Part shown: one piece after another, positions 13,750 to 46,367 of the stretch
Position numbering within the stretch: the stretch's first letter is position 1
Layout: each line of letters opens with the position of its first letter
Assembly (NCBI GenBank): GCA_037176725.1
Contig: JAZBRS010000057.1
Span: 86,697,501 to 86,761,500 of the forward strand
Length of the DNA: 64,000 nucleotides
Reading direction: 5' to 3'
Source: Posidonia oceanica
Lineage: Eukaryota > Streptophyta > Magnoliopsida > Alismatales > Posidoniaceae
The notes under the pieces: generated by a model
The model's input: the letters and a program-made list of their open reading frames with translations, nothing else
Databases searched by the model: none
What the model was told of the DNA's origin: nothing
Made by a program: the position numbers and the translations under genes

Positions 13750-15917
13750 TGTAATATCCTGATTTTCCATAATATAATTTGAGTTAAATATTTTAGAAAA
13801 TCTTTCCCTGTTATTGTTGTTGTTGTTGTTGTTGTTGTTGTTTGTGGTGTGCTGGTGTTTGTGTGTCTCTGGTGGTTTTGTTTCTAGCTCCTCGGTGTTG
13901 TTTGGTGTAGTCGGGAGAAAGTAAGGGCTTGGTTGAAGGAAGTTAGGGGCTTGTTTGAGGTTTGTGGAGAGAAAGGGAGAGGAATGCAATTTTCTCTTTT
14001 TCTCCCCTACACGTGCCCTTTTCCTTTCTTCTTTCTTCCCTTCTTTCTTTTCCTCGTTTTTCTTCCGCCACGATTGCCGATTGCTACTGCCCTTGGGATC
14101 GCCGACGGTCGGAGGAGGAAGAGGAGAGGCGGCCAATGCTGGAGGAGGCACAGAGGCAAGCCGGAGAGTGGAGGTGGTGCTCGTCGGCCGGAGGAGGCCG
14201 GGTTGTTCGTCGGCCAACCGGAGTTGGAGGTTGGGGCTCGCCGGTTGGTGCATGCCCTCCCTTCATTTCCTTTCCTAAATGCATGCCTAAATGCTTTGAA
14301 TGCATGAGATCTAGCTATGCCATGATAATTGTAGGGTTTGATTTGGTTTTGAATGGTTTTTGGATTGAATGTGGAATGGGTTTGTTTTGACCTCTTGAGT
14401 TTTGCGATTTTATATCTTGATGCATGATGTATGGATTGGTTTGATTTTTATGCCCAAGTGTAGAGCACTCGTGAGGCTTTGATTCTAGTATTTACTCGTG
14501 ATTTGTGGATTTTTGTAGTGGAATCAGTTGAGGTTCCCAGCTTGGGCGATTTGGTTTGGATTCTGTTTTGGTTTTCTGAAATCGCCCAGATCGGTACTCC
14601 CTTTTTGGACGGTATGCCGATTTCTGTAGAAATCGGTATAACTAGTCAATTTCGGTGTTCCGTTTTGTCGTCAGTTTTAGACCAGAACCTGACTTCGGTC
14701 TGCCGATTTCTGCGTGGATCGGTTCGACTGGTGGATTTGGTTCTACCGAACTAGGGATTTTCAGTCGACCGGTGGCATTTTTGGTGTGCCGTTTTTGGTC
14801 TGAAACTTGGACTCAGTACCTAGAATGGTTAACAGGTTGATTTGGTTCTCCCGAACCAGGGATTTTCAGTCGACCGATGACCTTTTTCAGTGTGCTGTTT
14901 TAGGGGAAAAATGGTTTCTAAAGAAGGAAGATTTGGGTTTTCGATGCATTTGGTTTTATTATGATTTGATATGGTTTTGTGGATTATGATGAATGATTTT
15001 GAAAAGATTTCCAAATGATTTTGGAAAAGAAATGCATGTTTGTGAAAAGAGTTGGAAATGATTTCCGTGGTTTTGAAGGACCAAGAGATCGAAGCTTCTG
15101 ACTGGTAACTAGGGGTGTTTGAATACACTCTATGGTTCGAGAGTTAGATAGCCTAGGGTGAGGTTAGCGGTACAGTAGGCCCCGTTGAAACAGACGGTCT
15201 ACCCTCTGTGCCGGTGCTGGCTGGGGTTGGGGTTGGAGTCCCCAGACTCTCAGGCACCAAAGGGGCGCCAGAGTGCGTAACCCCGTGTTGATATGATGTT
15301 GATCATGGAAATGATCATGATATAATTGAGGGCTGAGTTCCCGGGGCGGATTGTTCTCCCACACGGGGTAGTCTTCCGCGACATTGCAGCCAAGAGATGC
15401 GTGTGTCATCTGCAACTGCTTGTGGCTGGTGTCGTTCACCTGTGGCCAGGGTGTTCGATTAGATTTGGAATCGATGTGTGTGTGAGTGTGGATTTGAGAT
15501 GGTTTGGTGATGTATTTGAGAATGCATGTTTTTAGAAAATGTGGATAGCTTTATAAAAAGCATGTGGTTTTATAAAATGAATGTTATGCTTTTAAATAGC
15601 ATAGATTACTGTAATTTATGATGTTTATTGCTTTAGTAATGTTTCTGCTGCCATTTGCTGTGGTTTTGGGTGGCACATACTAGGTGACTTAAATGTCACT
15701 CACGCGTGTTTTGTGTTTTGGTTTTCATGTGCAAGGTTGAGGTACAGTCCAGCCTGGTGCTTGTTTAGGAGCCACGTAACCGCACACTGGGGATCTTGGG
15801 AGTATTTTAATAGTTTTGTAAAAGATTTAAATTTATTCTCAAATGTAATTAATTGTTTATTTCTTTTAAATATCATTTGGGTAGTTGATGCTATTTTGGT
15901 CGCGCCGGGGCGTGACA
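13750..15917 (+). mobile_element. Solo LTR-1 of a gypsy-type family (2168 bp), TSD GTTAC
   Basis: The sequence starts TGTAATATCCTGATTTTCC and ends GGGGCGTGACA, so it has TG..CA termini. GTTAC flanks it exactly at 13745-13749 and 15918-15922. No internal region or second LTR is attached, so it is a solo LTR left by intra-element recombination. A TATA-like TTTATAAAAAGC lies near 15552. A cluster of CGG-N4-CCG motifs spans about 14590-14905. A (GTT)n run is at about 13814-13842. The TGTAATATCC/GGGGCGT(G/T)ACA ends suit large plant gypsy LTRs, but no coding part exists here to prove the lineage. Confidence 0.9.
14590..14905 (+). promoter_or_regulatory. CGG-N4-CCG palindrome array in solo LTR-1
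   Basis: Instances include CGGTATGCCG, CGGTGTTCCG, CGGTCTGCCG, CAGTCGACCG (twice) and TGGTGTGCCG, plus weaker relatives such as CAGTGTGCTG. Nearly all keep a 4-bp spacer between the half-sites. Two copies of a longer unit, CCGAACTAGGGATTTTCAGT and CCGAACCAGGGATTTTCAGT, sit inside the array. A role as factor-binding sites is inference. Confidence 0.7.
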
Positions 15918-16289
15918 GTTACGGTGACTGCCACTCGTGCTCCGGACGCTCTGCTGACTGCCTTCCCTTCTCAGGGCCTTGTCGCTTTTGACACTCATCC
16001 TACGGCAGCATCTTCTGTTGTAGGTTCCCTACCTTCTAGATAGTCTGTTCTCTTGCCACCTCTGGCATCTGGTCCCTTACCGGTCTTGTCCTTCGGTCTT
16101 GCCACCGACGGGTCCCCCGCCATGCAAGCTCAGCACCTAATGGCGCTTGCATCGAGGTTGCAAGGCATGGCTCTGTCGCTTCATCCTTCTGTGGTCCCTG
16201 CTACTCCTGATGTTCCTCTACTGCCAGCTCCTGTGTTCCAAGCATACCTCACAACACCTCTGCCTCTGCCATCGCCCTAGCTCCTCACT

Positions 16290-18377
16290 TGTAACGCCCC
16301 AGCGCCACAAACTAGCACCAACTACCCAAGCTTAAACAATTAACTAATTAATTACAGGAAATTAAAATTTTAAACATAATAACTACCTAGATCCTGTGGT
16401 GTGCGGCTACGTGGCTCCAACTATATATCTATGCACCAGGCTGGACTGCAAACCTTAAATGCACCTGCAAACAAAATCAAAGAGAAACACGCGTGAGTGA
16501 CATTATTGTCACGCAGTACGCACCTACCAAAAACCAGGCAGGAGAAAAGCACAAGAACTGTACAAGGCATATCTATCAGAGTAGTCGGGGAAATCTCTTT
16601 TTAATCATGCCTTTCAAAAACATATCTTTTCTTTTCTTTAAAACATGTGCCTTCTGAAAATCACTTTGCGATTAAAGGCAAGCCAAACCCTGGCTAAGAC
16701 TGTCGCAAGGCAAAAAGCGTGGCGAAAACTGTCACAAAACCATGACACACGCATAATGCGTCAAAACCTGTCGAGTCACCCTGGCCACAGGCACTCAACC
16801 CAGCCATAAGCAGCCACTAGGGGCCTCAGCCCTTTATCGTGCACTACACTACTGTGACAGAACCACCCTGTACAAGAGTTCACTGCCTCGAATCCGTGAG
16901 CCACGAACCCTCAAAGTCCACACTAGACAACAATACACAGGGTACACTCTAAAGGTGTTCGAACTATTGGGGTCACATGGACCACGGGCCACCCTGGGGA
17001 CTCTTTCACCCCTAACCAGACCAATATCTAGTTGGAACCACATGGGAATTCCCTTCCCAGCTACGGGTTACCTTGGGGACTCTTTCACCCCTAACTCGTT
17101 CCAGTGCACAGCTCAAAACCACGGAAAACCATTTTCCAAAGCATTTCTCATTTTCCCATAAATCATTTGGAAATTATTTTCATATTGCCAAAATATCAAA
17201 ACCAATACACTATTTGGCAACTCCAAGAACCCAAAACTATCTGGGAAAGAAAAACCATACAAATCTAGCTCAGGGGTCTATTTCGGCAAACCGAAATTAT
17301 TCGGTGTACCGAACCTAGACCTAAGTCCACACTTTGACCTTGATTCGACATATCGGAAATGTTCGGTCGACCGAACAGCTCGCTGTCTCGGTACACTAAA
17401 ATGGATCGGTCGACCGAACCTGAACCTGGGCTCACATCCTAGAGCACAATCGGCATACTGAAACAGCTCGGTATACCGAAATCTAGGTAAAAACGGCATA
17501 CCAAACCAGACAATTCAAAAAACCTCAAAACATTGATCACCCAAAATGGGAACCTCAACCAATCCCAACACAAGCAACGAGAAGTTCCACAAAATGTACT
17601 AAATCAAAGAGCACGAAGTGGTCTATCATTCAAAACAAGAATCACAAGATTTCATCAATCGTAGCTCGAGATGTAAAATTCCAAAGACATGAAGCCCATA
17701 CGGCCAAACCGATGAATTTTCAACAAAAATCCTCTTTAAAATTAATCGAAAAATTCCCTAAAGCCATACAATCTCATTCATGCATCAAGAGCTAGCTAAT
17801 CAACCTATTATCAAGGATTCTGCATGAAATTTAAGATGAAGAAGGAAGTAGGAAGCGTACGAGTCGCTGGCAAGCTTCTCCTCCTCTTCTTCCTTCTCTG
17901 GCTGCTGCCCTCTCGCACGCTCTCCTTCTCTTCCTCCGGTTCTCTTCCTCTAGGTATCTTCCTCTCCCTCTCCTCTCGTGCCCCTCCTCCCATGGCCAGC
18001 CACTGCTTTAACAGCCCCTACCGCCGACAACCACCTGGAGACATGGGTGAAGGCGGTGCAGGGTATGGCGTTGGCAGGGAAGGCGTGTGGTGGAGGAAAC
18101 GCGGGAAACATTGTGCACTCTTGGCATTTCCTCTCTCTCTATTAATCCCAATATAAAGGTCCCACACATTAAAATGCCAAACCACCACACAGTACAAGGA
18201 GCCAGGAAAAGACCACAAACACAATAGGAGCACATAAACACAAATCTAATATGATTGCTTAACGAAAATAATTATAATTACAAGTAATCAACTCTAATTC
18301 CTCAAAATAATATGGGAAATAACTTCCCAAAACCCACTCAATAGAAAGTTTGGATCCTGAAAGACCTGGATATTACA
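16290..18377 (-). mobile_element. Solo LTR-3, same family as LTR-1 but inverted (2088 bp), TSD TCACT
   Basis: On the minus strand it reads TGTAATATCC...GGGGCGTTACA. TCACT flanks it exactly at 16285-16289 and 18378-18382. Its palindrome cluster at about 17280-17510 includes CGGTCGACCG (twice), CGGTATACCG, CGGTGTACCG and CGGCAAACCG. The insertion splits the gag of element A. There is no internal coding region. Confidence 0.9.
17280..17510 (-). promoter_or_regulatory. CGG-N4-CCG palindrome array in solo LTR-3
   Basis: At least nine sites follow CGG-N4-CCG or a one-base variant, several extended to TTCGGTCGACCGAA or TCGGTATACCGAAA. The spacer varies in sequence but not in length. Confidence 0.7.
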
Positions 18378-19650: not shown

Positions 19651-22616
19651 TGTAGACACCCCATTTTGACTGCCTGGAAGATGGTGGATCATCTGGGACG
19701 CTTGCTCGGACTCTGGAATGGCTCTCTCTCTCTCTCAAACTGACCCAAATTGACCTAAAACAAAATCCCATTCCAAAACTACCCAAAACTAACCCAAACC
19801 CCAAACCACAACTCAACCTAAGCCTTAACCAAGCCCAAAACCAAAAATATCAACCTTTGGCCTATTGGGTTCGTTGGACGCAGCATCTGGTGTGTCCAAC
19901 GTTGGACGGGCACTGCATCAGCGGCTAATGCGCCGAGACAGCCACCTCCTCCGCCAGCCTTCGGCTCACCACCTCCGTCCACCCACACTTACTACCCGTC
20001 TCCTCCACACTTACTCACCTCACTCCGGCCATCAGCTACGTGCCAAGACCTACCATCAGCTTGCCATGACGTCCTCTCCTCCCCAGCGCCTTTTCCGCTC
20101 ACCCAGCCACTCATTGCCACCGCCGCTTGATCCTCTGCCCAACAACAACTTCGGCGACCACCTGACATACCCAATGGCCTCGCCTGCCAACCCGCATGGC
20201 TTCCTCGGCCTCCCACGGTCACTGCCACCTCTGCCAAGACCTGCAATTGCCATAGAAACCTATTAACAAACCCAACAAAACAGCCCACTTCACCGCTTCT
20301 TCGAGGACACACAGAAAAAAATACTCTTTTGATGAGAAATTCGCCAAGTCCAGAGCACAGAGCAAACTCCCACGACCATTCCCAGACCTCCAGCTCCCTC
20401 TCCCATGCCTCCTATGCGCCAAGGGAGCTTGCCGGAGTTCACTGTCCGGCATTTTTCCTCCACCGCTGGCCTTCTGCAAACATCTATTCCAGGCCGCAAC
20501 AAGGTGAGTCCTCCTTACCGGTAGCTAGTCCTTGCATGTAGGAGAGTAGCAGACTAGCTCCGCATACACGCGCACCCCTTGGTTGATCGGAAATGGCCCA
20601 GCGTCCGACTGCAAGGAGGAGGAGGTGGGTGGCCCGATTTAGCCACCCATTTCCAGCACCAAACACATGGACATGTTCGTCACATCTCCCTCTTGCTTCC
20701 TGGATCCTTAGGCTCCAGCTTTGAGTCGATCTTGGCATTGATTGGGCCGGGGGAAGGCTCGGCCTGTTGGACGCCCCATCTGGTGCGTCCAACGTTGGAC
20801 TTGCCCTGAGGCAACGTCCAACGACCAGTAGTTCCTTTTTGCTTGCCTTTTTCTTTTATTTTGTTTCTGTAATACTTTAGCTTGCATGCTTTAGCTGCAG
20901 TTTTGTTGTGGCATGTTTTCTCCATGTTTCTAGATGCCATGCTAGGCTTGGATCTCTGTCTGGATCCATGTTTCATACCCCTTTTTGGTCTACTATTCTT
21001 GGGTGTTGGATGCTCGAACATAAGCGTCCAACGTTGGACGCTGTGTTTTCAGCGTCCTACGTCCCTGCATGCCTACACCTGTTTTTAATGCTCTGAAGTT
21101 ATGTTTATTTTGTGATATATGTCCAATCTACGTTGCATGCCTTCAGTTCATCTGTTTTCACTAGTTCACATGCATGTTTAATGGCTTTATTCTGAGCTTA
21201 GTTCCCTTGGCAAATTAATCTGCTGTCTGTCTGTGTTGGTCGCCAAGATCCCAGCATCCAACGTTGGACGCTGGTGTATCCCGCGTCCTACGCCTCTACT
21301 TGTTTACATGCCCTGCAATACTTGAATGATGCCTCCCTTTTGGTTTGTTGCTTCATCTATGCGTGTGTATGCCTTGTCCTAGCATGCCTTCTGTTGTTTA
21401 GATGAATGCCCTAGGGTTTTCCTTGCTCTGCCTTTATTGCAGGTTGCTGTGCTGTCTTCTTGTGTTAGCCGCTGAGCTCTCAGCGTCCAACGTTGGACGT
21501 TGATGATCACAGCATCTAATGCCTCCTGTCGGTTTAAAACCATCTTTTAACTTGCATTTGATCTCTGGGTTTTGTGCCTCGATCCTTCAATGTGGTTTGC
21601 CTGCCCATGACCTTTTCATTGCATTAAAAATTACATGTTTGCCAAATTGCATGGTTTCTACAGGTTTTGCCTCTCTCTGTGTTGGACGCCTGGATCCACG
21701 TGTCCAACATTGGACGCATGCTTTCCAGCATCCAATGCTTTAAGCTGGTTGAATTCTGACTTAAGTCGTCGCTTTTGTTTCGCTTGCCGTTTTTTGCGTT
21801 TTATTGCCTCCGATGCATGCTGTCAGACCCTTGTTTTCAGTTTTGCGCCTTGCATCGCATGCTTTCCCGTAGTTTTCTACGTCAACTTTCTTTCCTCTTT
21901 GCATGTCGCTTGCATCGTGTGGTTTTATTTGGCTTTCTCGCCCTTGTTCGCTTTCCCCTTTGCATGTTGGCTTGCATTACGTGGTTTTATCGGTGTTTTG
22001 TTTTATCGCCTGCATTTTGCATTAGGGCAGTGATGCTTACTGCCTGGAGTCTCACGAACCGGGGTTCGCCCTGTTCGAAACACAAGCAGCGCTGCTGAGC
22101 ACATAGGCAGCACGTTTAATTTCCCATTTAGCCATTTAGGCGTTGAAGCATACATAGCATGGCCTGTCGCCCCTCGGGCGTACAGTTAAAGGCAATCGTT
22201 ACCGAAATTCCTGCAAATGCGAGCGATAGCCAAAAAAGGCCGATTCTTCGGACGTGTCGGGGGTGCCTAACACTTTCCCTGCACGTAATAAGAGTCCTTA
22301 CCCTTTCTCTGGCCCGCAGTGACCATTTTGCCCTCGTCCTTGGCACGAGTCATACATTTTACATAGCATTGCATTCATGTGTTTGTTTTCTATGCTTTCC
22401 TTGGTTTTCCTCGTCTTCCCGATAATAGACTAGGTGGCAACTCTGTTTTGTCTTATCTTCTTTATTTTATTCGCGTTTTCCCAGTATTTTTGAATCGAGT
22501 TTCTCCTTAGATTTACTGCTGACCGCGGCTTCCCACCCTCTCTCACAACACGATCGAATCGCGAGTTATGGCAGCGTTGCGAGAACCGCCGTGGGCCCGA
22601 GCGGCGGACGGTCACA
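19651..22616 (+). mobile_element. Element B 5' LTR
   Basis: TG..CA LTR beginning TGTAGACACC and ending GGTCACA just before the primer-binding site. It carries repeated copies of the palindrome GCGTCCAACGTTGGACGC or close variants at about 19894, 20787, 21023, 21254, 21482 and 21701. A conserved Tat LTR block with GGGGTGCCTAACAC is near 22258, and a primer-site look-alike (GGTGGCAACTC) near 22431. Confidence 0.92.
21020..21725. repeat. Palindrome-centred tandem units (about 225 bp) in element B LTR
   Basis: Four units repeat at roughly 218-232-bp intervals. Each has an 18-bp palindrome (GCGTCCAACGTTGGACGC or a one- to two-base variant) followed by an AGCGTCCTACG-like echo and T-rich filler. 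The copy at 21023-21042 is a perfect 20-bp palindrome. The same set recurs in the 3' LTR at about 32296-33000. Confidence 0.8.
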
Positions 22617-22622
22617 GGAAAG

Positions 22623-24801: not shown

Positions 24802-26793
24802 TGTAATATCCTGATTTTCCATAATATAATTTGAGTTAATTATTTTGGAAAATCATTCACTGTTGTTGTTGTGTGTTGGTGTTTGTGTGTCTCTGGTGGT
24901 TTTGTTTCTGGCTCCTCGGTGTTGTTTGGTGTGGTCGTGAGGAAGTGAGGGCTTGATTGAAGGAAGTTAGGGGCTTGCTTGTGGTTTGTGAAGAGAAAGG
25001 GAGAGGAATGCAATTTTTCTCTTTTCCCCACCGCACATGCTCTCTTCCTCTTCTTTCTTCCCCTCTTTCTTCTCCTTTCCTTCTCGTTTCTTCTCCACCT
25101 GACAGCCAACTGCTGCCTAGGTGATCTCCGGCGGTCGAAGGAGGAGGAGGAGGAGCAGGCGGTGCTGGAGGAGCACGGAGGCAAGCCGGTATGAGGAGGG
25201 TGGTGCTCGTCGACCGGAGGATGGCGGAGTTCGTCGGCCGGCCGAGGTTGGGGCGGAGTTGGTTGTCGGAGTTGGTGCGTGTTCTCCCCCTCGAATTCTT
25301 TCCAAAATTCTTGCCTAAATGCTTTGAATGCATGTGATCTAGTTATGCCATGATAATTGTTGGATTTTATTTGGTTTTGAATGGTTTTTGGATTGAATGT
25401 GGATTGAATAGAAATAGGTTTTATTTGACCTCTTGAGCTTTGTGAATTTGTATCTTGATGTATGATGCATGAAATGGTTTGATTTTTGTGCTCAAGTGTA
25501 GAGCACTCGTGATGCTTTGATTCTAGTATTTATTCGTGGTTTGTGGATTTTTGTGGTGGAACTGGTTTTGATTCCCAGTTCGGGCAATTTGGGTTAGAGC
25601 CCTGTTTTTGTTTTCTGGAATTGCTTAGAACAGAGCGCCGTTTTCTCCTGATCTGGGGCACCGTTTTTGGGTGGAGCGCCGTTTTCTGTAGCAAAACGAA
25701 GCACCGGTCCAAAACGGAGCGCCGTTTCAGTGCAGAATTGTGAGCTTTTGCTCCTGATCCGGAACTCCAGTGAATTTCGACGTTCCGAATCAGAGGGTGA
25801 ATGCTTTCTAAAGAAAAGGTTTTGAAATTCGTTTTGCTATGAATTATGGTGGTTTTTGGTGTTTTGTGGATTATGAGAAATGATTTTCAAAGAATTTCCA
25901 AATGATTTTGGAAAAGAAATGCATGTTTGTGAAAAGACCTTGGAAATGTTTTCCGTGGTTTTAAAGGACCAAGAGACCGAAGCTTCTGACTGGTAACTAG
26001 GGGTATTTGAATACACTCGATGGTTCGAGAATCAGATAGCCTAGGGTGAGGTTCGCGGTACAGTAGGAGCCGTTGAAACAAACGGTCTACCCTCTGTGCC
26101 GGTGCTGGCTGGGCTGGGGTTGGAGTCCCCAAACGCTCAGGCACCAAAGGGACGCTAGAGTGCGTAACCCCGTGTTGATATGATGTTGATCATGAAAATG
26201 ATCATGACTAAATTGAGGGCTGAATTCTTGGGGCAGATTGTTCTCCCACACGGGGTAGTCTTCCGCGGCATTGCAGCCAAGAGATGCGTGTGTCATCTAC
26301 AATTGCTTGTGGCTGGTGTCGTTCACCTGTGGTCAGGGTATTCGATTTGTGTGTGAGTGTGTGGATTTGAGATGGTTTGTTAATGTATTTGTGAATGCAT
26401 ATTTTGGTAGAAAATGTGGATAGCTTTATAAAAGCATGTGGTTTTCTTGAAATGAATGTTATGCTTTTAAATAGCATAGATTACTGTAATGTATGATGTT
26501 TATTGCTTTAGTAAATGTTTCTGCTGCTGTTTGCCGTGGCTTTGGGTGGCACGTACTGGGTGACTTAGATGTCACTCACGCGTGTTTTGTGTTTTGGTTT
26601 TCAGGTGCAGGGTCGAGGTACAATCCAGCTTGGTGCTTGTTTTGGAGCCACATAGCCACACACTGGGGATCTTGGGAGTATTTTAATAGTTTTGTAAAAG
26701 ATTTAAATTTATTTTCAAATGTAATTAATTGTTTATCTCTTTTAAATATCATTTGGGTAGTTGATCCTATTTTGGTCGCGTCGGGGCGTGACA
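24802..26793 (+). mobile_element. Solo LTR-2, same family as LTR-1 (1992 bp), TSD GTAGC
   Basis: Starts TGTAATATCCTGATTTTCC and ends GGGGCGTGACA. GTAGC flanks it exactly at 24797-24801 and 26794-26798. Its flanking blocks align closely with LTR-1, including TTTATAAAAGC near 26424, but its palindrome cluster differs in sequence. It is inserted inside element B, which makes it younger than B. Confidence 0.92.
25615..25800 (+). promoter_or_regulatory. CGG-N4-CCG palindrome array in solo LTR-2 (AACGGAGCGCCGTT type)
   Basis: Sites include CGGAGCGCCG, TGGAGCGCCG, CAGAGCGCCG, TGGGGCACCG, CGAAGCACCG, CGGAACTCCA and CGACGTTCCG, mostly followed by TTT. The 4-bp spacer is kept. The site type matches copia element C and not sibling LTR-1 or LTR-3. 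Confidence 0.7.
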
Positions 26794-28880: not shown

Positions 28881-29300
28881 TATGCACCGGGCTGGCAGCC
28901 CTGACTGCTCGGTTGATGCCCATCAAAATGTCTTTATCGGGCTAATAGCCCTAACTATCTGGTGATGAGTCTGTTAACTTCTCACTGGTCTGGTAGCCCC
29001 AACTGCCCGGTTGACGTCCGTCAAAATGTCTTTATCAGGCTGATAGCCCTAACTATCCGGCGACGAGTCCGTTAACTCCACACCGGGCTGGCAGCCCTAA
29101 TTGCTCGGTTGCCACCCGTTAAAATGTCACCCTGCATTTCCCCTTGCATTATCCCATTGCATTCCCCACCGGCATTGCACATCGCACGGTGAGTCTTTAC
29201 ATCCATCTCACTGCATCCGGACTGGTATCCCTAACTACTCGGCTGGCAAACTCGTTAGTTTTGTCTCCACTTTGCATTCTAATGCCAAGGGTGCTTCGGC
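28880..29300 (+). repeat. Array of about 48-bp hairpin-bearing units, second cluster
   Basis: Five to six units resemble those at 27160-27470 and alternate ATCGGGCTGATAGCCCTAAC with CGGGCTGGCAGCCCTAA-type units. Several units carry TTGACGYCCGTCAA, another inverted repeat. A decayed unit lies near 29215-29270. Confidence 0.75.
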
Positions 29301-29697
29301 TATCCCCTGGTATCGAGATACCAGGGGCATCTTTATTTGGCTGTCCTCTGGTATCACATTTTCATCTGCATCGAGCTGACATCCCTAACTGTTACGGGAG
29401 CGTCTATGGACCTCTGCCACACCTTTGGGTATGGTATTCCTGTTGCATTCGTGGTTACAAGTCATCCGACTTGTCACCACCCCTCTTGCCTGATAGACTC
29501 GCTGGCCTGTCACTACCTTCGATGCCAAGGGCGCTTCGACTGCCCCCTGGTATCATTCCTAATATCAGGGGCATTTCTTTTTGCTGCCCTTTGGTATCGC
29601 CACACCCTCATTTGGGCTGACATCTCCAACTGTCATGGAAGCATCTACGGACCTTTGTCGCACCTTCTGGTTCGGTATTCCCGCTCTTCTCCACTCT
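29301..29697 (+). repeat. Duplicated segment with ACCAGGGGCAT motifs
   Basis: A block near 29281-29420 (ATGCCAAGGGTGCTTCGGCT ... CTGACATCCCTAACTGT) recurs near 29520-29650 (ATGCCAAGGGCGCTTCGACT ... CTGACATCTCCAACTGTC). The copies are diverged and show no coding signal. Confidence 0.55.
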
Positions 29698-29940
29698 CAT
29701 CGGGTTGATAGCCCTAACTATCTGGTGACGAGTCCATCAACTCCTCATCGGGCTGATAGCCCTAACTATCCGGTGACGAGTCCGTCAACTCCTCATCGGG
29801 CTGATAGGCCTAACTATTCGGTGACAAGTCCGTTAACTCCTCATCAGGCTGATAGCCCTAACTATCCGGTGATGAGTCCGTCAACTCCTCACAGGGCTGA
29901 TAATCCCTAAATATCTGGCGATAGGTCCGTTAACTTATCA
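29698..29940 (+). repeat. 48-bp tandem array, five copies
   Basis: Five head-to-tail units read CATCGGGCTGATAGCCCTAA followed by CTATCCGGTGACGAGTCCGT and CAACTCCT, with few substitutions. Each contains GGGCTGATAGCCC (5-bp stem, 3-bp loop) and GACGAGTCCGTC (4-bp stem, 4-bp loop). This is the most homogeneous and presumably youngest part of the repeat region. Confidence 0.9.
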
Positions 29941-30937: not shown

Positions 30938-33891
30938 TGTAGACACCCCATTTTGACTGCCTGGAAGATGGTGGATCCTCTGGGACTCTGGAATGGCTCT
31001 CTCTCTCTCTCAAACTGACCCAAATTGACCTAAAACAAAATCCCATTCCAAAACTACCCAAAACTAATCCAAATCCCAAACCACAACTCAACCTAAGCCT
31101 TAACCAAGCCCAAAACCAAAAAAATCAACCTTTGGCCTATTGGGTTCGTTGGACGCAGCATCTGGTGTGTCCAACATTGGACGGGCACTGCATCAGCGGC
31201 TAATGCGCCGAGATAGCCACCTCCTCCGCCAGCCTTCGGCTCACCACCTCCGTCCACCCACACTTACTACCCGTCTCCTCCACACTTACTCACCTCACTC
31301 CGGCCATCAGCTACACGCCAAGACCTGCCATCAGCCTGCCATGACATCCTCTCCTTCCCAGCGCCTCTTCCGCTCACCCAGCCACTCACTGCCACCGCCG
31401 CTTGATCCTCTGCCCAACAACGACTTCGACGACCACCTGACATACCCAATGGCCTCGCCTGCCAACCCGCGTGGCTTCCTCGGCCTCCCACGGTCACTGC
31501 CACCTCTGCCAAGACCTGCAATTGCCACAGAAACCTATCAGCAAACCCAACAAAATAGCCCACTTCACCGCTTCTTCGAGGACACACAGAAAAAAAACTC
31601 TTTTGATGAGAAATTCGCCAAGTCCAGAGCACAGAGCAAACTCCCACGACCGTTCCCAGACCACCAACTCCCTCTCCTGTGCCTCCTACGCGCCAAGGGA
31701 GCTCGCCGGAGTTCGCTGTCCGCCATTTTTCCTCCACTACTGGCCTTCTGCAAACATCCATTCTAGGCCGCAACAAGGTGAGTCCTCCTTACCGGTAGCT
31801 AGTCCTTGCATGTAGGAGAGTAGTAGACTAGCTCCGCACACACGTGCACGCCTTGGTTGGTTGGAAATGGCCCAGCCTCCGGCCGCAAGGAGGAGGAGGT
31901 GGGTGGCCCGATTTAGCCACCCATTTCCAGCACCGAACACATGGACGTGTTCGTCTCATCTCCCTCTTGCTTCTTGGATCCTTAGGCTCCAGCTTTGAGT
32001 CGATCTTGGCTTCGATTGGGCCGAGGGAAGGCTCGGCCTGTTGGACGCCCCATCTGGTGCGTCCAACGTTGGACTTGCCCTGAGGCAGCATCCAACGACC
32101 TGCAGTTCCTTTTTGCTTGCCTTTTTCTTTTATTTTGTTTCTGTAATACTTTAGCTTGCATGCTTTAGCTGCAGTTTTGTTGTGGCACGTTTTCTCCATG
32201 TTTCTAGATGCCATGCTAGGCTTGGATCTCTGTCTGGATCCATGTTTCATACCCCTTTTTTGGTCTACTATTCTTGGGTGTTGGATGCTCGAACATAAGC
32301 GTCCAACGTTGGACACTGTGTTTTCAGCGTCCTACGTCCCTGCATGCCTACACCTGTTTTTAATGCTCTGAAGTTATGTTTATTTTGTGATATATGTCCA
32401 ATCTACGTTGCATGCCTTCAGTTCATCTGTTTTCACTAGTTCACATGCATGTTTAATGGCTTTATTCTGAGCTTAGTTCCCTTGGCAAATTAATCTGCTG
32501 TCTGTCTGTGTTGGCCGCCAAGATCCCAGCATCCAACGTTGGACGCTGGTGTATCCCGCGTCCTACGCCTCTACTTGTTTACATGCCCTGCAATACTTGA
32601 ATGATGCCTCCCTTTTGGTTTGTTGCTTCATCTATGCGTGTGTATGCCTTGTCCTAGCATGCCTTCTGTTGTTTAGATGAATGCCCTAGGGTTTTCCTTG
32701 CTCTGCCTTTATTGCAGGTTGCTGTGCTGTCTTCTTGTGTTAGCCGCTGAGCTCTCAGCGTCCAACGTTGGACGTTGATGATCACAGCATCTAATGCCTC
32801 CTGTCGGTTTAAAACCATCTTTTAACTTGCATTTGATCTCTGGGTTTTGTGCCTCGATCCTTCAATGTGGTTTGCCTGCCCATGACCTTTTCATTGCATT
32901 AAAAATTACATGTTTGCCAAATTGCATGGTTTCTACAGGTTTTGCCTCTCTCTGTGTTGGACGCCTGGATCCACGTGTCCAACATTGGACGCATGCTTTC
33001 CAGCATCCAATGCTTTAAGCTGGTTGAATTCTGACTTAAGTCGTCGCTTTTGTTTCGCTTGCCGTTTTTTGCGTTTTATTGCCTCCGATGCATGCTGTCA
33101 GACCCTTGTTTTCAGTTTTGCGCCTTGCATCGCATGCTTTCCCGTAGTTTTCTACGTCAACTTTCTTTCCTCTTTGCATGTCGCTTGCATCGTGTGGTTT
33201 TATTTGGCTTTCTCGCCCTTGTTCGCTTTCCCCTTTGCATGTTGGCTTGCATTACGTGGTTTTATCGGTGTTTTGTTTTATCGCCTGCATTTTGCATTAG
33301 GGCAGTGATGCTTACTGCCTGGAGTCTCACGAACCGGGGTTCGCCCTGTTCGAAACACAAGCAGCGCTGCTGAGCACATAGGCAGCACGTTTAATTTCCC
33401 ATTTAGCCATTTAGGCGTTGAAGCATACATAGCATGGCCTGTCGCCCCTCGGGCGTACAGTTAAAGGCAATCGTTACCGAAATTCCTGCAAATGCGAGCG
33501 ATAGCCAAAAAAGGCCGATTCTTCGGGCGTGTCGGGGGTGCCTAACACTTTCCCTGCACGTAATAAGAGTCCTTACCCTTTCTCTGGCCCGCAGTGACCA
33601 TTTTGCCCTCGTCCTTGGCACGAGTCATACATTTTGCATAGCATTGCATTCATGTGTTTGTTTTCTATGCTTTCCTTGGTTTTCCTCGTCTTCCCGATAA
33701 TAGACTAGGTGGCGACTCTGTTTTGTCTTATCTTCTTTATTTTATTCGCGTTTTTCCAGTATTTTTGAGTCGAGTTTCTCATTAGATTTACTGCTGACCG
33801 CGGCTTCCCACCCTCTCTCACAACACGATCGCATCGCGAGTTATGGCAGCGTTGCGAGAACCGCCGTGGGCCCGAGCGGCGGACGGTCACA
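30938..33891 (+). mobile_element. Element B 3' LTR
   Basis: Partner of 19651-22616 with the same ends and the same palindrome set. By eye the first 1.2 kb differs at roughly 4-5% of positions and lacks 12 bp near its start, while the last 1.7 kb differs at well under 1%. Element A gag resumes immediately after, at 33892. Confidence 0.92.
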
Positions 33892-35450: not shown

Positions 35451-35524
35451 TCGTCATTGTCATGGTGGAAAACTTCGATAAAGAGTGAGTTGAGTTAGTC
35501 TCTTCCGTATCTCCTCAGACTGTC

Positions 35525-37742: not shown

Positions 37743-38844
37743 TGTTGGATTATATGGCTTCTCTAGAGGGGGGATGAATAGAGATTATAGGTATAATAGG
37801 TTATGATTTACTAATTTTTGTAACTTATCAAATTTGTCTTTATTTGATCTATAAAGGAAAATGCATACACAGAAATGAGAAGAGAGATATTGAATAAACA
37901 ACACAATAATTTATAGTGGTTCGGCCAAATCCTGGCCTAGTCCACTCTCTCAAGATCTCCTTGAGGTTTCTTTAATCTTTAACCCTAAAGATTACTTACT
38001 TGTTTGTTGAAAGTTCCTTCAACAAAACCTTGTAACGTTCCGTTGCCCCTTCTCCAATCCTGAGAAGATACTCCTTGCTTGTAATGGAAGATTTCAGACT
38101 CAACACCCTTTTTGCCAAGCTCTGTAGCACTGATTTGAAGTGGTAGCTTGAGGTAGCTTGGGAAGCACTTGAAGATGGAAGTGTAGCTCTTTACACTTGT
38201 GTATTAGCTCAAGTATATGTGTAGTAGTGTAGTACTTGATGGAGGTCCAATAGGGGTCATACTTATAAGCAAAAGCTTAACCCAAATTAGTCTTTAATGA
38301 CTAGAAAATCTTCTCCAAAGATCTTAAATGGCTAGTTTAAACGGAGCTCCGGAATATAGCGGAATGCCGTTTGATTACCTAGCTGTTCCAACACACGACT
38401 AGAACGGAGCTCCGTTCTGGACCGGAGCGCCATTTTGGCGCAGTCCTCCTTTTCTTTATTCCATCTTTATTCGGCCCATTTACTATTTGAGCCCAAAACC
38501 ATAACGGAACGCTGTTATAAAACGGAGTACCGTTTATGGTCAATAAAGCACATATAATACAGATTTCTTATATTTCCTAAGTTCTATACAATCGATCTTA
38601 TCTCATGATATTTCTAAGACAGCTTTACAGACTTTTACAATCAATAAGAAATATAATTACAACATTTGTACACAGATTGAACAAACACTGATTTTCTATT
38701 CCTCGGTCTATATCTCAGTCTTCTTGAATGCTTTGAGTATCGTTATAAAACATGCTATAACAATCTCAATAAACATGTTAGACATATAACATTATACCAC
38801 ATATATCATCAAAACACAATATATATTTGGAGTATTTTCCATCA
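37743..38844 (-). mobile_element. Element C 3' LTR (1102 bp, full length)
   Basis: In element sense it begins TGATGGAAAATACTCC and ends at 37743. It matches the truncated LTR at 45632-46367 over its first 736 bp. A palindrome array lies at about 38340-38545, and a TATA-like CTTATAAGTA follows about 80 bp downstream, at 38260-38270 (minus strand). Confidence 0.9.
38340..38545 (-). promoter_or_regulatory. CGG-N4-CCG array upstream of TATA-like box in element C LTR
   Basis: Sites are CGGAGCTCCG (twice, once within AACGGAGCTCCGTT), CGGAATGCCG, CGGAGCGCCA, CGGAACGCTG and CGGAGTACCG. Transcription would run leftward, so the array lies just 5' of TATAAG at about 38262-38267. The same set occurs at 45861-46060 in the other LTR. 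Enhancer function is inferred from position only. Confidence 0.7.
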
Positions 38845-38858
38845 ATCTCTCCCTTTTT
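38845..38858 (-). other. Element C polypurine tract
   Basis: On the minus strand AAAAAGGGAGAGAT directly abuts the 3' LTR start at 38844. This is the expected place and composition for plus-strand priming. Confidence 0.8.
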
Positions 38859-39835
38859 GATGATGACAAAAATAACATTTTATCTGCTCCCCCTGTCACT
38901 ATGTATATTGAATTTTTGAAAATTAATCTACATAAGTATTCTCATTTCATATTAAACCATAAGTATAGTATATTAATTATTATATCTTTATATGCTCCCC
39001 CTTACTTCAAATATGGATACTGAAATATTTCAAATATACCAAAATATATGATCCTTTTATAATATACTGTAGGAATTAAATCACTTTGTATTTCATAGCA
39101 TCCCATAGCATATCCATAATTCTCCTCCTTACTTTTTGTCATAAACAAAATAAAATAGGCATTACAACAGATACCATCATATGTATAAGTGATACCAGAT
39201 ACCTAAGATTAATTAATTTTAGAGCCTTGGTTATAGAAATTTAATATGTAAGTGATAGATATACCTTTCATATGTGTATAGACAACCACTATTACATGGA
39301 TACCATAGATACAAGCTAAGGGAATGTTCAAACTGAACAACACATGATGCATAAGATTCACGTAACTCCCCCTTACTTCAAGCTTATATTGCTAATGTAA
39401 GAAATTCAAAATACCAATATACCATTATGTAACTTTTTCATGGTATCATCTATTTGATTCCATAATCAATAAGTAAGAATAACAAGTGAAAATGCGTATT
39501 CGTCATACACAGTAATATGGTGTACTAAAGAAATAGTCACAAGATATCTTGATAAAATCAATTTTCAATATTAAACCATCCAAGTTTCAATATTACATAT
39601 CCATCTGAATGTAATGCAAAAGAAAATTTACATCATGGTAAACTAAAGATGTATTCTATTCATTTGGAGGAAATCTACCACGTAGATATCCCATCAGATC
39701 ATCCACCTTTCTCTCGATTTCTACTGATCAGCGAGAGGATTCAATGTGATATTCATCCTTCTTCCGCTCCATTTCTGTAGACCAACGAGAGGACTCAAGG
39801 TGATAGTTGTCTAACCTTGTAGACATTGACTCAAA
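38859..39835 (-). other. Element C non-coding region between env-like ORF and 3' LTR
   Basis: AT-rich DNA with repeated CTCCCCCTTACTTCAA-like motifs (about 38998, 39366). No coding signal. Confidence 0.65.
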
Positions 39836-40929: not shown

Positions 40930-41290
40930 TTGCGAAAAGAAACGGGACGCCGTTTTTTTAACGGAGCTCCGTTTTATATAATAAAACAATTCAAATAAGT
41001 CAGAATCGGAGCTCCGATATATACCGACGTTCCGTAGTAGGAAACAACGGAGTTCCTTTTTCACCGGTGCTCCGGATCAGGGATTTTCGAGACTCCATTT
41101 TTAGACGGAGCTCTAGATCAAGGAATTTCGGGGCTCCGTTTTTAGCCGAGGCTCCGGATCAAGGAATTTCGGGGCTCCGTTTTTAGCCGGTGTCCCGATG
41201 AATTTTCCAGGGATGAAAACAAAGAAATTTAATTACTGTAGAAACAGAGCGCCGTTTTTCCACCAGAGTTCTGAATCAGAGTTTTTGAAT
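40930..41290 (-). promoter_or_regulatory. Second CGG-N4-CCG array, between pol and third ORF of element C
   Basis: Sites include CGGAGCTCCG (several, e.g. AACGGAGCTCCGTT, TCGGAGCTCCGA), CGACGTTCCG and CGGTGCTCCG, plus two near-identical copies of a longer unit with GGATCAAGGAATTTCGGGGC. It lies 165-525 bp upstream of the env-like ATG. It echoes the LTR array, so an internal promoter or other signal for the third ORF is a plausible reading. Confidence 0.65.
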
Positions 41291-41458: not shown

Positions 41459-44325
41459 TCATACTTCAATATGTTTTGTTCTTGAGTGATGTACTGGATT
41501 TTTGGATAAATTTATAGTACTTGTGTTATCACAAAATATTGGTGTTTTTTCAAATAATAGTTTGTAATCTCTTAGTGTTTGTTGCATCCAAAGAACTTGA
41601 GCATAACAGCATCCAGCTGCTATATACTCAGCTTTTGTGGTGGATAAAGCAACACTGTTTTGCTTTTTGCAAAACCATGATATTAGCAAGTGTCCTAGAA
41701 ACTGACATGTACCACTAGTACTCTTCCTATCAGTCTTACAACCCGTATAGTTTGCATCACTATATGCGGTTAGGTCTAGGTTTGAGTTCTTTGAAAAATA
41801 AAGTCCATAATCCCTAGATTCTTGTAAATATTTGAGAATTCTTTTAACTGCTGTTAAATGCGATTCCATGGGAGAGACTTGGAATCTGGCACACAAACAT
41901 ACACTGAACATAATGTCAGGCCTACTTGCAGTTAAATAGAGTAGGGATCCTATCATTCTTCTATTTAGTTTTTGATCTACTTTTATCCCTATTTCATCCT
42001 TATCAAGTCTACATGAAGTGCTCATAGGAGTTTTGGCAGCCTTGGAGTTTTCCATGCCAAATTTCTTTAGAAGTTCATTTGTATATTTTTCTTGATTTAT
42101 AAATATTCCATTTTTTATTTGTTTTATTTGTAATCCTAAAAAGAATGTTAGTTCTCTCATCATACTCATTTCAAATTCTTTTTGCATGCTTTCAGAAAAT
42201 TGTTCACAAAGTTTTTTGTTTGTAGATCCAAAGATTATGTCATCTACATAAATTTGGGCAATTAAAATGTCATTGTTTACATTCTTGATGAACAAAGTTA
42301 TATCTACAATTCCAATTGAAAAGCCATCATCTATTAGAAACTTCTTAAGCCTATCATACCAAGCTCTAGGAGCTTACTTAAGTCCATATAAGGCTTTATT
42401 GAGTTTGAAAACATGATCTATACTTTGTTCATTTTCAAACCCTGGAGGTTGCTTGATATATACTTCTTCTTCAATAATTCCATTCAAGAATGCACTTTTT
42501 ACATCCATTTGGAATAATTTAAAATCTCTGTGACACGCAAAAGCTAACAGCATTCTTATAGACTCTAGTCTTGCAATTGGAGCATAAGTCTTATCAAAGC
42601 TATATCTTCTTCTTGGTTATAACCTTGGGCAACTAGCCTAGCTTTATTTCTAATGACATTGCCTGATTCATCTAGTTTATTTCTAAAAATCAATTTTGTT
42701 CCTATTATTAGCTGATTTTCAGATTTGGGAACTAATTCTCATACATTGTTTCTAGTAAATTGATTTAGTTCATCGTGCATTGCCATAGTCCAATATTCAT
42801 CATTGCAAGCTTCTTGGATATTTTTGGGCTCTATGGAAGACATGAAGGCATATGTTGCACATTCAAGATCAACTTTGGATATTGTTAAGATATCTTTGGA
42901 AACCTCACCAATGATAAGATCCTTGGGATGACTAGTGGCATATTGCCAAGACTTAGTTAGATTTTCATTTTTTGTGATGTTGTCAGTTGTTTTTGTTGTG
43001 TTTTCAATATTTTGCAGTTCTTCATCATTTTCTATATGTATTGTTTGATTTTTATTTTCATCAAAGTTAATGTGTAAATATTCTTCTATAATTAGAGTTC
43101 TTTTGTTATAAACTTTATATGCCTTGCTTCTTGAAGAGTATCCAATAAAGATTGTCTCATCAGATTTAGAATCAAATTTATCAAGGTGATCTTTGGTGTT
43201 TAAGATAAAGCACTTGCATCCAAAAACTTTGAAATAAGAAATTCGAGGGGTATTTCCAAACCATAATTCATAAGGAGTTTTGTTCAAAATAGGACGAAGT
43301 AAAACACGATTCAAAATATAGCATGCAGTGTTGACTGCTTCGGCCCAGAAGTGCTTAGGCAAATCATTTTCGCAAAGCATGGTTCTGGCTATTTCTTGAA
43401 GTGTTCTATTTTTTCTTTCAACTACTCCATTTTGTTGTGGAGTCCTAGGGAAAGAAAAGTCGTGTTCAAAACCGTTTTTAATACAAAAATTTTCAAAATC
43501 ATCATTTTCAAATTCTCCACCATGATCACTTCTAATTTTTATGATGTTGAAACCCTTTTCATTTTGAACTCCTTTGCAAAACTTTTGAAACTCATTGAAA
43601 ACATCGCTTTTGTTTGTAATAAATATAACCCAAGTAAAACGAGAAAAGTCATCAACTAATACAGAAACATATCGTTTTCCTCCTAGACTTAGAGTTCTAC
43701 TTGGGCCAAATAAATGAATATGAATAAGTTCCAAAGGCGTAGAAGTAGAAACAATGTCTTTGGATATGAAAGATGATTTGAATTGTTTTCCAAATTGATA
43801 TGCATCACATAGTTTATCATTTTTGAAATTCAATTTGGGCAAGCCTTTTACAAAATCACCTTTTGATAACTTAGATAATTGATTCATGCTACCATGGCCA
43901 AGTTTCCTATGCCAAAACCAATTTTCATCATTTGAAGCTGCAAAGCAAGAGTTTATTGAAGTTTTAGGTTCGTATTGGATTTTGATCCTATATATATTAT
44001 TTTTTCTACTTCCAATAAATAATACTTTCTTAGTATTAGCATCAATAATAGTACATACTTTCTTATCAAATATTACTTTGTATCCTTTATCACAAAGTTG
44101 ACTAATGCTAATAAGATTATGCTTGAGGCCATCTACAAGAAGTACATTTTCTATAGAAGGATCTTCGGGATTACCTATGTTCCCGATTCCGACTATCTTG
44201 CCTTTGCTATTATCTCCGAACATGACATTTCCATCGTCTTTTGACGTAAGAGTGCTTAGAAGTTTATATTCTCCAGTCATGTGACGAGAGCAGCCACTAT
44301 CCAATATCCATTTGGATTTCATCAT
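41459..44325 (-). pseudogene. Element C pol: protease, integrase, reverse transcriptase, RNase H
   Basis: 44325-42739 is open. [13 protein letters not shown] is the protease active site, then WFWHRKLGH (GAG-pre-integrase), and the integrase core with IRSDHGGEFEN and PQQNGVVERKNRTLQE. The first catalytic position reads HIHLFGP where HxDLFGP is expected, so the first acidic residue is lost. From 42738 to 42300 RT continues through frameshifts and stops (e.g. GLK stop APRAW). From 42295 it is open again: IYVDDIIFGS (RT catalytic YVDD), SRPDIMFSVCLCARFQ and the RNase H end LSTTKAEYIAAGC. Not functional as it stands. Confidence 0.9.
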
Positions 44326-44360
44326 TTTCCTACATTAGATGAAAGTAAAGTCTTAGGAAC

Positions 44361-45631
44361 TCAAATTTTCTTTTGATAAGATTTGCCATAATTATTTCTT
44401 AGAACCCATTTGTTGGAGTTTTGTTTCCTTACTACAAATACATAATTTTCTTTTGTAGTTTCCCTTATAAACCCATTTTCATAAAGTGTGTTTTGAAATA
44501 GAGAAAATCCTATACCATGCTTGTGTAGTGATTTTCTTTGGTTTGAGAGTAAAAGATCCAGATTTTGTTTTCCCTTTGTGAATTTAGTTACTGTGTTGAG
44601 TAAGTCATTGCTTTTGTCTTTTAGGGATGAAATGTCTTTTTTAAGATTTTTTATTTTATATTTCATTTGTCCTATGCTCATATTCAGTTCTATATTTTTT
44701 TGATCTAGTTCTTCATTTGCAAAAACCAATTTTTTTCCTTCTTCTATAAGAGTGTCATTTACAGAATTTAATTGATCAATGTTGAGAGTCATATCTTTGG
44801 ATTTTACTTTCAAATTTTTATATTTTTTATATAAAACATTGAATGCATCTAATAACTCTTCTGTATCTATTTCAGAAGAAGAACCAATGTCATCACCTTG
44901 TGCCATGAAGCACATGTGAGCTGTTTCATTTTCTGAAGGAGATTCTTCATCAGAAGAAGAATCACTATCCTCCCATGTGGCCTGTAGTGCATTTTTCTTG
45001 GATTTTTTGCAGTTGTTATTATCCTTTTTAAAGGTTTTCATTTTTAATAAAGGACAATCTCTTTTTATATGTCCCGGTTTGTTGCATTTGTAGCAAAGTG
45101 GAGTTTCATCTTTGTTATTTGACTTTTCAAGAAATTTTCCATTTCTTTTATATTTTCTATTTTTAATGAATTTTTAAAATTTTCTAGTTAGAAGAGCATT
45201 GTCTTCATCTTCTTCTTCCTCTGATTCATCAGAATTAGTAGTTATGTTTAAGGCTATATTTTTTCTATTTATTCCTTTCTCAGTTTCTTTATCTTTTATT
45301 TGGACTTCATAGGAAATCAAATTTCCCATAAGTTCTTCTAATGAGTAGTTGGATAAATCTTTTGCTTCTTCAATGGTCGTAGTCTTCTTTTCCCATTCTT
45401 GAGTTAAGGATCTCAGAATTTTTCTTACAAGGTCACTTTGAGAATATCCTTTTCCTAGTGATTGTAAAGGATTAGTGATTTCATTAAATCTAGTGAACAT
45501 TTCACTAATGGGTTCATTGGGTTTCATTTTAAATAATTCATATTTATGTACTAATGTATTTATTTTAGTTTCTTTTACTTGGTTGGTTCCTTCATGAGTG
45601 ATTTCTAAATTATGCCAAGCTTCATGTGAAG
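44361..45631 (-). pseudogene. Element C gag, N-terminus deleted
   Basis: Codons from about 45631 downward give KTSHEAWHNLEITHEG, KINTLVHKYELFKMKPNEPI, MFTRFNEITNPLQSLG and LTQEWEKKTTTIEE, the UBN2/copia gag region. After one stop near 45174 comes a perfect CCHC knuckle, CYKCNKPGHIKRDC (about 45052-45096). A long coiled-coil-like Lys/Asp/Asn-rich segment follows (44361-45041). Residues upstream of KTSHEAW are not gag: they are read from LTR sequence across a deletion. Confidence 0.85.
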
Positions 45632-46367
45632 TTTTTGCCAAGCTCTGTAGCACTGATTTGAAGTGGTAGCTTGAGATAGCTTGGGAAGCACTTGAAGATG
45701 GAAGTGTAGCTCTTTGCACTTGTGTATTAGCTCAAGTATATGTGTAGTAGTATAGTACTTGATGGAGGTCCAATAGGGATCATACTTATAAGCAAAAGCT
45801 TAATCCAAATTAGTCTCTAATGACTAGAAAATCTTCTCCAAAGATCTTAAATGGCTAGTTTAAACGGAGCTCCGGAATATAACGGAATGCCGTTTGATTA
45901 CCTAGCTGTTCCAACACACGACCAGAACGAAGCTCCGTTCTGGACCGGAGCACCGTTTTGGCGCAGTCCCCCTTTTCTTTGCTCCATCTTTATTCGGCCC
46001 ATTTGCTATTTGAGCCCAAAACCATAACGGAGCGTCGTTATAAAACATAGTGCCATTTATGGTCAATAAAGCACATATAATACAGATTTCTTATATTTCC
46101 TAAGTTCTATACAATCGATCTTATTTCATTAAATTTCTGAGACAGCTTTACAGACTTTTACAATCAATAAGAAATATAATTACAACATTTGAACACAGAT
46201 TGAACAAACACTGATTTTCTGTTCCTCGGTCTATATCTCAGTCTTCCTGAATGCTTTGAGTATCATTATAAAACATGCTATAACAATCTCAATAAACATG
46301 TTAGGCATATAACATTATATCACATATATCATCAAAACACAATATATATTTGAAGTATTTTCCAACA
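45632..46367 (-). mobile_element. Element C 5' LTR, truncated (736 of about 1100 bp)
   Basis: It matches the first 736 bp of the 3' LTR in element sense, including the palindrome array (45861-46060) and the TATA-like CTTATAAG (about 45784-45791). The rest of the LTR, the primer-binding site, the leader and the gag start are missing. Gag sequence follows at once, and TGCCAAGCT occurs on both sides of the joint. Confidence 0.88.

What the first reader, a model, noticed from the sequence alone, without database searches (positions are those of the whole stretch)
14590..46060. Same CGG-N4-CCG palindrome array in a copia element and in unrelated gypsy-type LTRs
Copia element C (38340-38545, 40930-41290, 45861-46060) and the three gypsy-type solo LTRs (14590-14905, 17280-17510, 25615-25800) each contain clusters of 10-bp sites. 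Each is a CGG half-site, four variable bases and a CCG half-site, and the spacer length is nearly constant. Similarity extends beyond the palindrome: copia has CTCCGGATCAGGGATTTTCG, and solo LTR-1 has CTACCGAACTAGGGATTTTC. Independent origin of the extended match is unlikely. Either a regulatory cassette moved between superfamilies, or both are shaped by one host factor that reads paired CGG sites. I recall reports of conserved palindromic motifs in Sirevirus non-coding regions; sharing with gypsy LTRs is what looks new.
Basis: partly seen in the sequence, partly recalled or inferred. Interest (0 to 1): 0.86.

Follow-up and report, generated by a model that had tools for sequence, protein, structure and literature searches.

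The report
Shared palindrome grammar in plant retrotransposons
Two unrelated groups of plant jumping genes carry the same base-pair-exact arrays of short DNA palindromes in their control regions, which suggests that both are read by one DNA-binding protein; the palindromes were known from one group, while the sharing and the exact spacing rule look new.

Summary
In the six named regions exact CGG-Nk-CCG sites occur only at k=4 (23 sites; none at any other k from 0 to 12). The copia element is a Sirevirus and its arrays are the CGG-CCG "repeated motif" boxes of Bousios 2010, so that half is known. The other LTRs belong with Ty3/gypsy: their ends align to the LTR of an element that encodes Ty3 gag, protease and RVT_1, and that LTR carries the array too. 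Genome-wide there are 14,816 exact 18-bp pairs, against 74 at 17 bp, 3,620 at 19 bp, and 28 when the inner spacer is 5. The word CAGGGATTTT abuts a site 5,087 times, but only 20 times with one extra base between, and it does so in both superfamilies. Best reading: a binding platform for one dimeric host factor, not identified here; cassette transfer is the main rival.

The parts
13750..15917 (+). Solo LTR A (Ty3/gypsy by LTR homology), TGTAATATCC...GGGGCGTGACA, target duplication GTTAC
   Evidence: ends, duplication; ends align to the LTR of a coding-verified Ty3 element
14590..14905 (+). Array in LTR A: 3 exact N4 sites (14610, 14653, 14696), 7 with one mismatch; CGGT-type vocabulary; two linkers of the CAGGGATTTT type
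16290..17510 (-). Inverted, diverged relative of LTR A (mapped part only; far end not mapped)
   Evidence: (about 68-69% identity)
17280..17510 (-). Array in the inverted relative: 5 exact N4 sites (17284, 17302, 17364, 17407, 17469), 7 with one mismatch; TTCGGTnnACCGAA type
24802..26793 (+). Solo LTR A' (same family as A), target duplication GTAGC
25615..25800 (+). Array in LTR A': 1 exact N4 site (25715), 7 with one mismatch; CGGAGC-type vocabulary like copia C; not alignable to the array of LTR A above the null
37743..38844 (-). 3' LTR of copia element C (Sirevirus); TATA-like box at 38267
38340..38545 (-). Array in the 3' LTR: 4 exact N4 sites (38342, 38360, 38405, 38523), three 18-bp steps
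40930..41290 (-). Array in the linker after pol: 7 exact N4 sites, 11 with one mismatch, 41-bp tandem unit; holds CTCCGGATCAGGGATTTTCG
41459..45731 (-). Ty1 gag, zinc knuckle, integrase and RVT_2 in separate ORFs of element C
45632..46367 (-). Remaining part of the 5' LTR of element C; the LTR end, primer site and gag start are missing at 45632
45861..46060 (-). Array in the 5' LTR: 3 exact N4 sites (45865, 45883, 45946)

Best explanation
The arrays are multi-site binding platforms for one dimeric, sequence-specific DNA-binding factor of the host (or a few close paralogues) that recognises two facing CGG half-sites exactly 4 bp apart, prefers A/T just outside the site, and binds cooperatively with a neighbouring dimer 18 bp further on (19 tolerated, 17 not). 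CAGGGATTTT, placed exactly in the 13-bp linker of the 23-bp step, is read by the same complex or by a partner. In the Sirevirus the platform lies upstream of the LTR TATA box and again after pol; in the Ty3/gypsy elements it lies in the LTR. It most likely acts as an enhancer of retrotransposon transcription, and both superfamilies keep it because they use the same factor. Shown: presence, fixed inner spacer, fixed step, sharing by Ty1 and Ty3, register of CAGGGATTTT. Inferred: that a protein reads it, that it is a host protein, that it activates transcription. A LOB-domain (LBD) protein is only a candidate: no binding was tested.
For: N4 only in all six regions. Genome-wide pairs of N4 sites: step 18, 14,816 (reversed control 45); step 19, 3,620 (27); step 17, 74 (8); step 18 with N5 spacers, 28 (64). 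Sequence varies while spacing holds: 36 distinct sequences among the 50 places listed of 14,816. A or T at the second linker base in 70 of 72 site ends, never C at the first. The 18-bp step is the commonest in both classes: 7 among 32 Ty3 sites (random mean 0.90), 8 among 22 Ty1 sites (0.56). Array in the LTR of an element encoding Ty3 gag, RVP_2 and RVT_1, whose second LTR copy lies 7,947 bp on. CAGGGATTTT-CGG-N4-CCG 2,597 + 2,490 places, reversed control 0, 6 + 14 with one base inserted; in a Ty3 LTR (L035) and in Ty1 linkers (L009, L036). CpG observed/expected 1.12 to 1.51 in the arrays against 0.65 in the window.
Against: No protein was found or tested. Genome counts include copies of the same families and are not independent events. 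The two copia LTR arrays are copies of one another. 11 of 15 copia-gypsy array alignments are reached by more than 20 of 500 strict nulls, so most of the shared signal is geometry, not long sequence. In one search the Ty3 count of 7 was reached at least once in 2,000 placements. Arrays also fold as RNA more stably than shuffles. Published Sirevirus boxes in other plants use other inner spacers, for example N5, so one universal factor across plants is unlikely.
Confidence: 0.5

Rival explanations
1. Cassette transfer: an array with its spacing moved between Sirevirus and Ty3 elements by template switching, gene conversion or nested insertion, and was then kept by selection in both.
For: The A' array resembles the copia LTR and linker arrays beyond the half-sites, 28 of 35 bp over two palindromes in the LTR case, 0 of 500 strict nulls in all three comparisons, while A and A', copies of one LTR family, have arrays that do not align above the null (28 against a null maximum of 35). 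CAGGGATTTT is shared in register.
Against: The shared stretches are short; the composite is antisense to the coding strand in the Ty1 linkers read and sense in the Ty3 LTR read; vocabularies differ between families although the geometry is the same.
Confidence: 0.3
2. RNA or foldback role: the palindromes form hairpins in the transcript that attract or avoid small RNAs, as proposed for maize Sireviruses.
For: Five of six arrays fold with z below -3 against 40 dinucleotide shuffles each. Palindrome clusters of maize Sireviruses are described as small-RNA hotspots (passages of PMC5311732 and PMC10760457).
Against: A hairpin needs no base-exact 18-bp step and no exact N4 spacer; a 3-bp stem is weak; one array has z -1.3. 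Any palindrome array folds as a by-product.
Confidence: 0.09
3. Element-encoded reader, like the VANC anti-silencing proteins of VANDAL transposons: a retrotransposon protein binds its own arrays.
For: Arrays of short motifs in noncoding regions are how VANC systems look (titles and abstract openings of PMC5735166 and PMC10398659). Published boxes before the env-like gene accompany that gene.
Against: Two superfamilies without a common extra gene share the arrays. Pfam scans of five ORFs of element C and five of L035 show no DNA-binding domain beyond integrase and zinc knuckle; L035 covers only part of its element, so this is not an exclusion.
Confidence: 0.07
4. By-product of tandem duplication: the regular spacing only reflects unequal copying of one unit.
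For: A 41-bp tandem unit in the copia linker; a 105-bp internal duplication in LTR A.
Against: 36 of the 50 listed pairs are distinct in sequence yet keep the step; the same geometry occurs in LTRs without detectable common ancestry (copia LTR end against Ty3 LTR end scores 23, shuffle mean 23.4).
Confidence: 0.03

Closest known systems
Sirevirus repeated-motif (RM) boxes, Bousios et al. 2010, PMC2829016 (passages; section 9)
   Same: Palindromes with a CGG-CCG core, high copy number, in the LTR upstream of the TATA box and in the linker before the env-like gene, CpG-rich; Vitis CGGTCGACCG and Usier GTCGGACGTCCGAC have an N4 core
   Different: Reported there as specific to Sireviruses among the Ty1/copia elements studied, inner spacer differing between elements, no step rule in the passages read, no reader found. 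Here one spacer and one step are shared by Ty1 and Ty3 elements of one genome
Palindrome CACCGGACNNNGTCCGGTG common to Copia and Helitron elements of maize, PMC10760457 (passages)
   Same: One palindrome shared between transposon superfamilies
   Different: Other sequence and spacer, shared with DNA transposons, discussed as RNA structure
VANC / VANDAL anti-silencing motifs of Arabidopsis, PMC5735166 and PMC10398659 (listing and abstract openings only)
   Same: Short motifs accumulated in transposon noncoding regions and read by a specific protein
   Different: DNA transposons with an element-encoded reader
LOB-domain (LBD) transcription factors, described in PMC10118128 and PMC7660924 (passages); the wheat structure paper PMC6322873 is not held
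   Same: Dimeric zinc-finger proteins that bind GCGGCG-type DNA and discriminate palindromic DNA by a 'molecular calipers' mechanism
   Different: No passage read gives CGG-N4-CCG or an 18-bp step as their site; a lead only

Membership tests
Sirevirus (element C) | Ty1/copia gag, integrase and reverse transcriptase (RVT_2) | tested here: met
   PF14223, PF00665, PF13976, PF07727 in separate ORFs
Sirevirus (element C) | Several AGGGGGAG tracts before the 3' LTR and AT/TG attachment site | tested here: met
   octamers at 39373, 39002, 38894; the terminal tract is a one-base variant, AGGGAGAG-AT-TG, at 38854
Sirevirus (element C) | CGG-CCG boxes 200-400 bp into the LTR and before a TATA box | tested here: met
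   LTR array about 310 to 500 bp into the LTR, TATA-like box about 75 bp after it (published values)
Sirevirus (element C) | Additional boxes upstream of an env-like gene | tested here: inconclusive
   Linker array present; the ORF 39836-40294 matches only Transposase_32, below the curated cut-off (22.7 against 45 bits)
Sirevirus (element C) | LTR / primer binding site junction | tested here: not met
   No TGGTATCAGAG in the stretch; copies elsewhere have about 340 bp more between LTR and gag, so this copy has lost the junction; the other features are enough to place it
Ty3/gypsy (LTRs A, A', inverted relative) | Own coding region with RVT_1 | not testable with these tools
   A and A' are solo LTRs; a candidate complete copy at C35:2569946 / 2576733 could not be read
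Ty3/gypsy (LTRs A, A', inverted relative) | LTR homologous to that of a coding-verified Ty3 element | tested here: met
   100, 96, 132 against L010 (shuffle maxima 54, 55, 49) and 87, 87, 126 against L035 (56, 51, 55); copia LTR end 23 and 20
Ty3/gypsy element L010/L035 | Ty3 gag, protease, RVT_1, primer site after an LTR that holds the array | tested here: met
Published RM box (arrays of the Ty3 LTRs) | CGG-CCG palindromes in high copy in the LTR | tested here: met
Published RM box (arrays of the Ty3 LTRs) | Restricted to Sireviruses | tested here: not met
   Array in the LTR of a Ty3 element
LBD binding site | Bound by an LBD protein in vitro or in vivo | not tested

The most novel reading that the evidence does not exclude
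One host protein with a two-level calipers (4 bp inside a site, 18 bp between sites) has become a common regulatory currency for LTR retrotransposons of both superfamilies in this 3-Gb plant genome: more than ten thousand exact site pairs obey one base-exact grammar with a second fixed word, CAGGGATTTT, and LTR families replace their arrays wholesale, and sometimes exchange them, to keep up with that factor.
Probability: 0.35. Interest if true: 0.85.

Novelty: new variant of a known kind. Interest (0 to 1): 0.72.

Why it matters
The CGG-CCG boxes of Sireviruses were published in 2010 without an identified reader. A rule exact to one base pair, found in two superfamilies whose LTRs show no common ancestry, turns 'some palindromes' into a defined ligand: a two-site probe with an 18-bp step, with 17-bp and N5 versions as matched negative controls. 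It would also show how unrelated retrotransposons of a large plant genome can be switched on, or silenced, together.

Tried and rejected
Tried without result. The DNA search of LTR A in its own genome, the pattern ACCGN{0,30}CGGNNNNCCG, the 21-bp step and the 23-bp step did not complete, so the second step of the grammar has no genome-wide count. A protein search did not name the plant: the 120 listed hits are 44 to 88% identical, the 88% one is unnamed, named ones are plants such as Vitis, Citrus and Ulmus. LBD motif papers: one search gave none; one search gave nothing usable for the binding site.

Rejected. Base composition as the cause. That all the LTRs might be copia. That the quoted 20-bp match alone proves common origin. 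That CAGGGATTTT is a chance 10-mer: from one pair of arrays chance was plausible; the register test speaks against it.

Literature. In searches (listings; of 59 papers in one search, 40 were listed, of 16 in one search, 15) I saw no report of CGG-CCG arrays in Ty3/gypsy LTRs or of an 18-bp step. The library holds open-licence papers only; Bousios et al. 2016 (Genome Research), the closest later paper, is not held and is known to me from citing passages. This is not proof of absence.
Full report
What was checked. In the window exact CGG-Nk-CCG counts for k = 0 to 12 are 6, 1, 5, 7, 27, 6, 7, 5, 13, 8, 11, 2, 1. The six regions hold 23 of the 27 N4 sites and none at any other k; shuffles expect 0.05 to 0.15 per region. 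Two random 100-kb blocks of the same genome hold 5 and 7 N4 sites. Among the window and loci L009-L034, clusters of three or more exact sites were found at N4 only, of the spacers 2 to 7 tested.

What carries the arrays: copia. Element C on the minus strand has Ty1 gag, integrase and RVT_2 domains in separate ORFs. Copies elsewhere place its LTR at 37743-38844. It has three AGGGGGAG octamers, an AGGGAGAG-AT-TG junction, and a TATA-like box about 75 bp after the LTR array. It is a Sirevirus, and its arrays in the LTR and in the linker after pol match the published repeated-motif boxes in type and place. CTCCGGATCAGGGATTTTCG occurs 157 times in the genome (80 + 77), reversed control 0; the 8 loci fetched of these (two overlap) are all this element's linker.

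What carries the arrays: the other LTRs. 13750-15917 and 24802-26793 are solo LTRs with 5-bp target duplications; they have no internal region, so their class was open. A related LTR at L010/L035 (G000:C1, 12.317 to 12.326 Mb) is followed by a TGGTATCAGAGC primer site and by Ty3 gag, RVP_2 and RVT_1 ORFs, and carries the array. The ends of LTRs A, A' and the inverted relative align to the LTR ends of L010 (100, 96, 132; shuffle maxima 54, 55, 49) and L035 (87, 87, 126; 56, 51, 55); the copia LTR end does not (23 and 20). So the sharing between superfamilies is real; for the window copies it rests on LTR homology, not on coding sequence of their own.

The spacing rule. Sites with at most one mismatch come in pairs that start 18 bp apart in both classes, with 23-25, 41-45 and 61-66 among the recurrent further steps. 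Exact-18 distances: 7 among 32 sites of four Ty3 arrays (random placement mean 0.90, maximum 7) and 8 among 22 sites of three Ty1 arrays (mean 0.56, maximum 4), two of which are the two LTRs of one element. Genome-wide exact pairs: step 18, 14,816 (reversed control 45); step 19, 3,620 (27); step 17, 74 (8); 18-bp step with N5 spacers, 28 (64). The tool calls such counts lower bounds for repeats. Of the 50 places listed, all on one contig, 36 are distinct in sequence. A or T stands at the second linker base in 70 of 72 ends and C never at the first.

The second word. The 13-bp linker of the 23-bp step reads GATCAGGGATTTT and GATCAAGGAATTT in copia C, AAACAGGGATTTT in the Ty3 L035, AACTAGGGATTTT and AACCAGGGATTTT in LTR A. 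In the window itself the sites that follow the CAGGGATTTT form are degenerate (two mismatches in copia C, one in LTR A); intact composites are in L035, L036 and L009. Genome-wide CAGGGATTTT directly against CGG-N4-CCG occurs 2,597 + 2,490 times, reversed 0; with one base inserted 6 + 14 times. The first ten matches shown have spacers TCGA, AAAA, TAGA and TCTA; the letters of the others were withheld. Relative to the coding strand the composite is antisense in the Ty1 linkers (L009, L036, element C) and sense in the Ty3 LTR (L035).

Two copies of one LTR, two vocabularies. The flanks of A and A' are 79% and 91% identical, but their arrays align no better than the null (28, null maximum 35). A's array matches L010 and L035 (115 and 119, null maxima 30 and 33); A' matches the copia arrays (40, 35, 40; 0 of 500 nulls each).

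Results against the reading. With half-sites held fixed, 11 of the 15 copia-gypsy comparisons are reached by more than 20 of 500 nulls, LTR-1 against the linker by 12, and the three with A' by none. The latter also fit transfer. Copies inflate the genome counts. Five of six arrays fold as RNA with z below -3 (-5.9, -4.5, -3.2, -3.6, -3.6; A' -1.3), so a hairpin role is not excluded. Of five further array elements on C1 whose coding sequence was read, four are Ty1 (L036-L039) and one Ty3 (L035, met because its LTR matched the window); the share of Ty3 among the genome's arrays is unknown.

Mechanism. A fixed distance inside the site and a fixed distance between sites, over free sequence, is what cooperating dimers on DNA require. 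I take the arrays for enhancer platforms read by one host factor. LBD proteins fit in kind, which is a lead and no more. That the sequence comes from a flowering plant follows from the element types and the plant proteins; the species is not known to me.

Novelty. The boxes are known in Sireviruses, and a palindrome shared by Copia and Helitron elements is reported in maize. Their presence in Ty3/gypsy LTRs and the 18-bp rule I did not see in print, within the limits of the library. I rate it a new variant of a known kind.

Noticed in passing
L017:5976-8112 (G000:C19, near 100.026-100.028 Mb): A dense array of CGG-N9-CCG sites (39 N9 sites in the 100-kb block, against 5 to 18 at other spacers; commonest CGGACTTATCGGCCG): a different fixed spacer in another repeat.
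   Followed up: partly
G000:C1:12318275, 12321365, 12329312: Three LTR arrays of one Ty3 family in a row, 3.1 and 7.9 kb apart: a complete pair plus an extra LTR.
   Followed up: partly
window 45632: The 5' LTR of copia element C ends abruptly inside gag; copies elsewhere have LTR end, primer site and gag start there. Described only.
   Followed up: partly
window 19651-22616 and 30938-33891: A 97.4% identical direct repeat of about 3 kb, 11.3 kb apart, probably the LTRs of a Ty3 element into which solo LTR A' inserted.
   Followed up: no
window 28885-29128 and 29696-29915: Tandem repeats of 48 and 98 bp with the motif CATCGGGCTGATAGCCCTAACTATCCGGTGACGAGTCCGTCAACTC.
   Followed up: no
window 58029-58232 and 61700-61991: Two arrays of a 30-bp repeat (about 7 and 10 copies) inside a duplicated 0.9-kb stretch, 95% identical.
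   Followed up: no
window 51320-52087: ORF matching DUF7745 and, below its cut-off, the plant mobile domain.
   Followed up: no
six arrays of the window: CpG observed/expected is 1.12 to 1.51 in the arrays against 0.65 for the whole window, so they have not lost CpG as the rest has.
   Followed up: no
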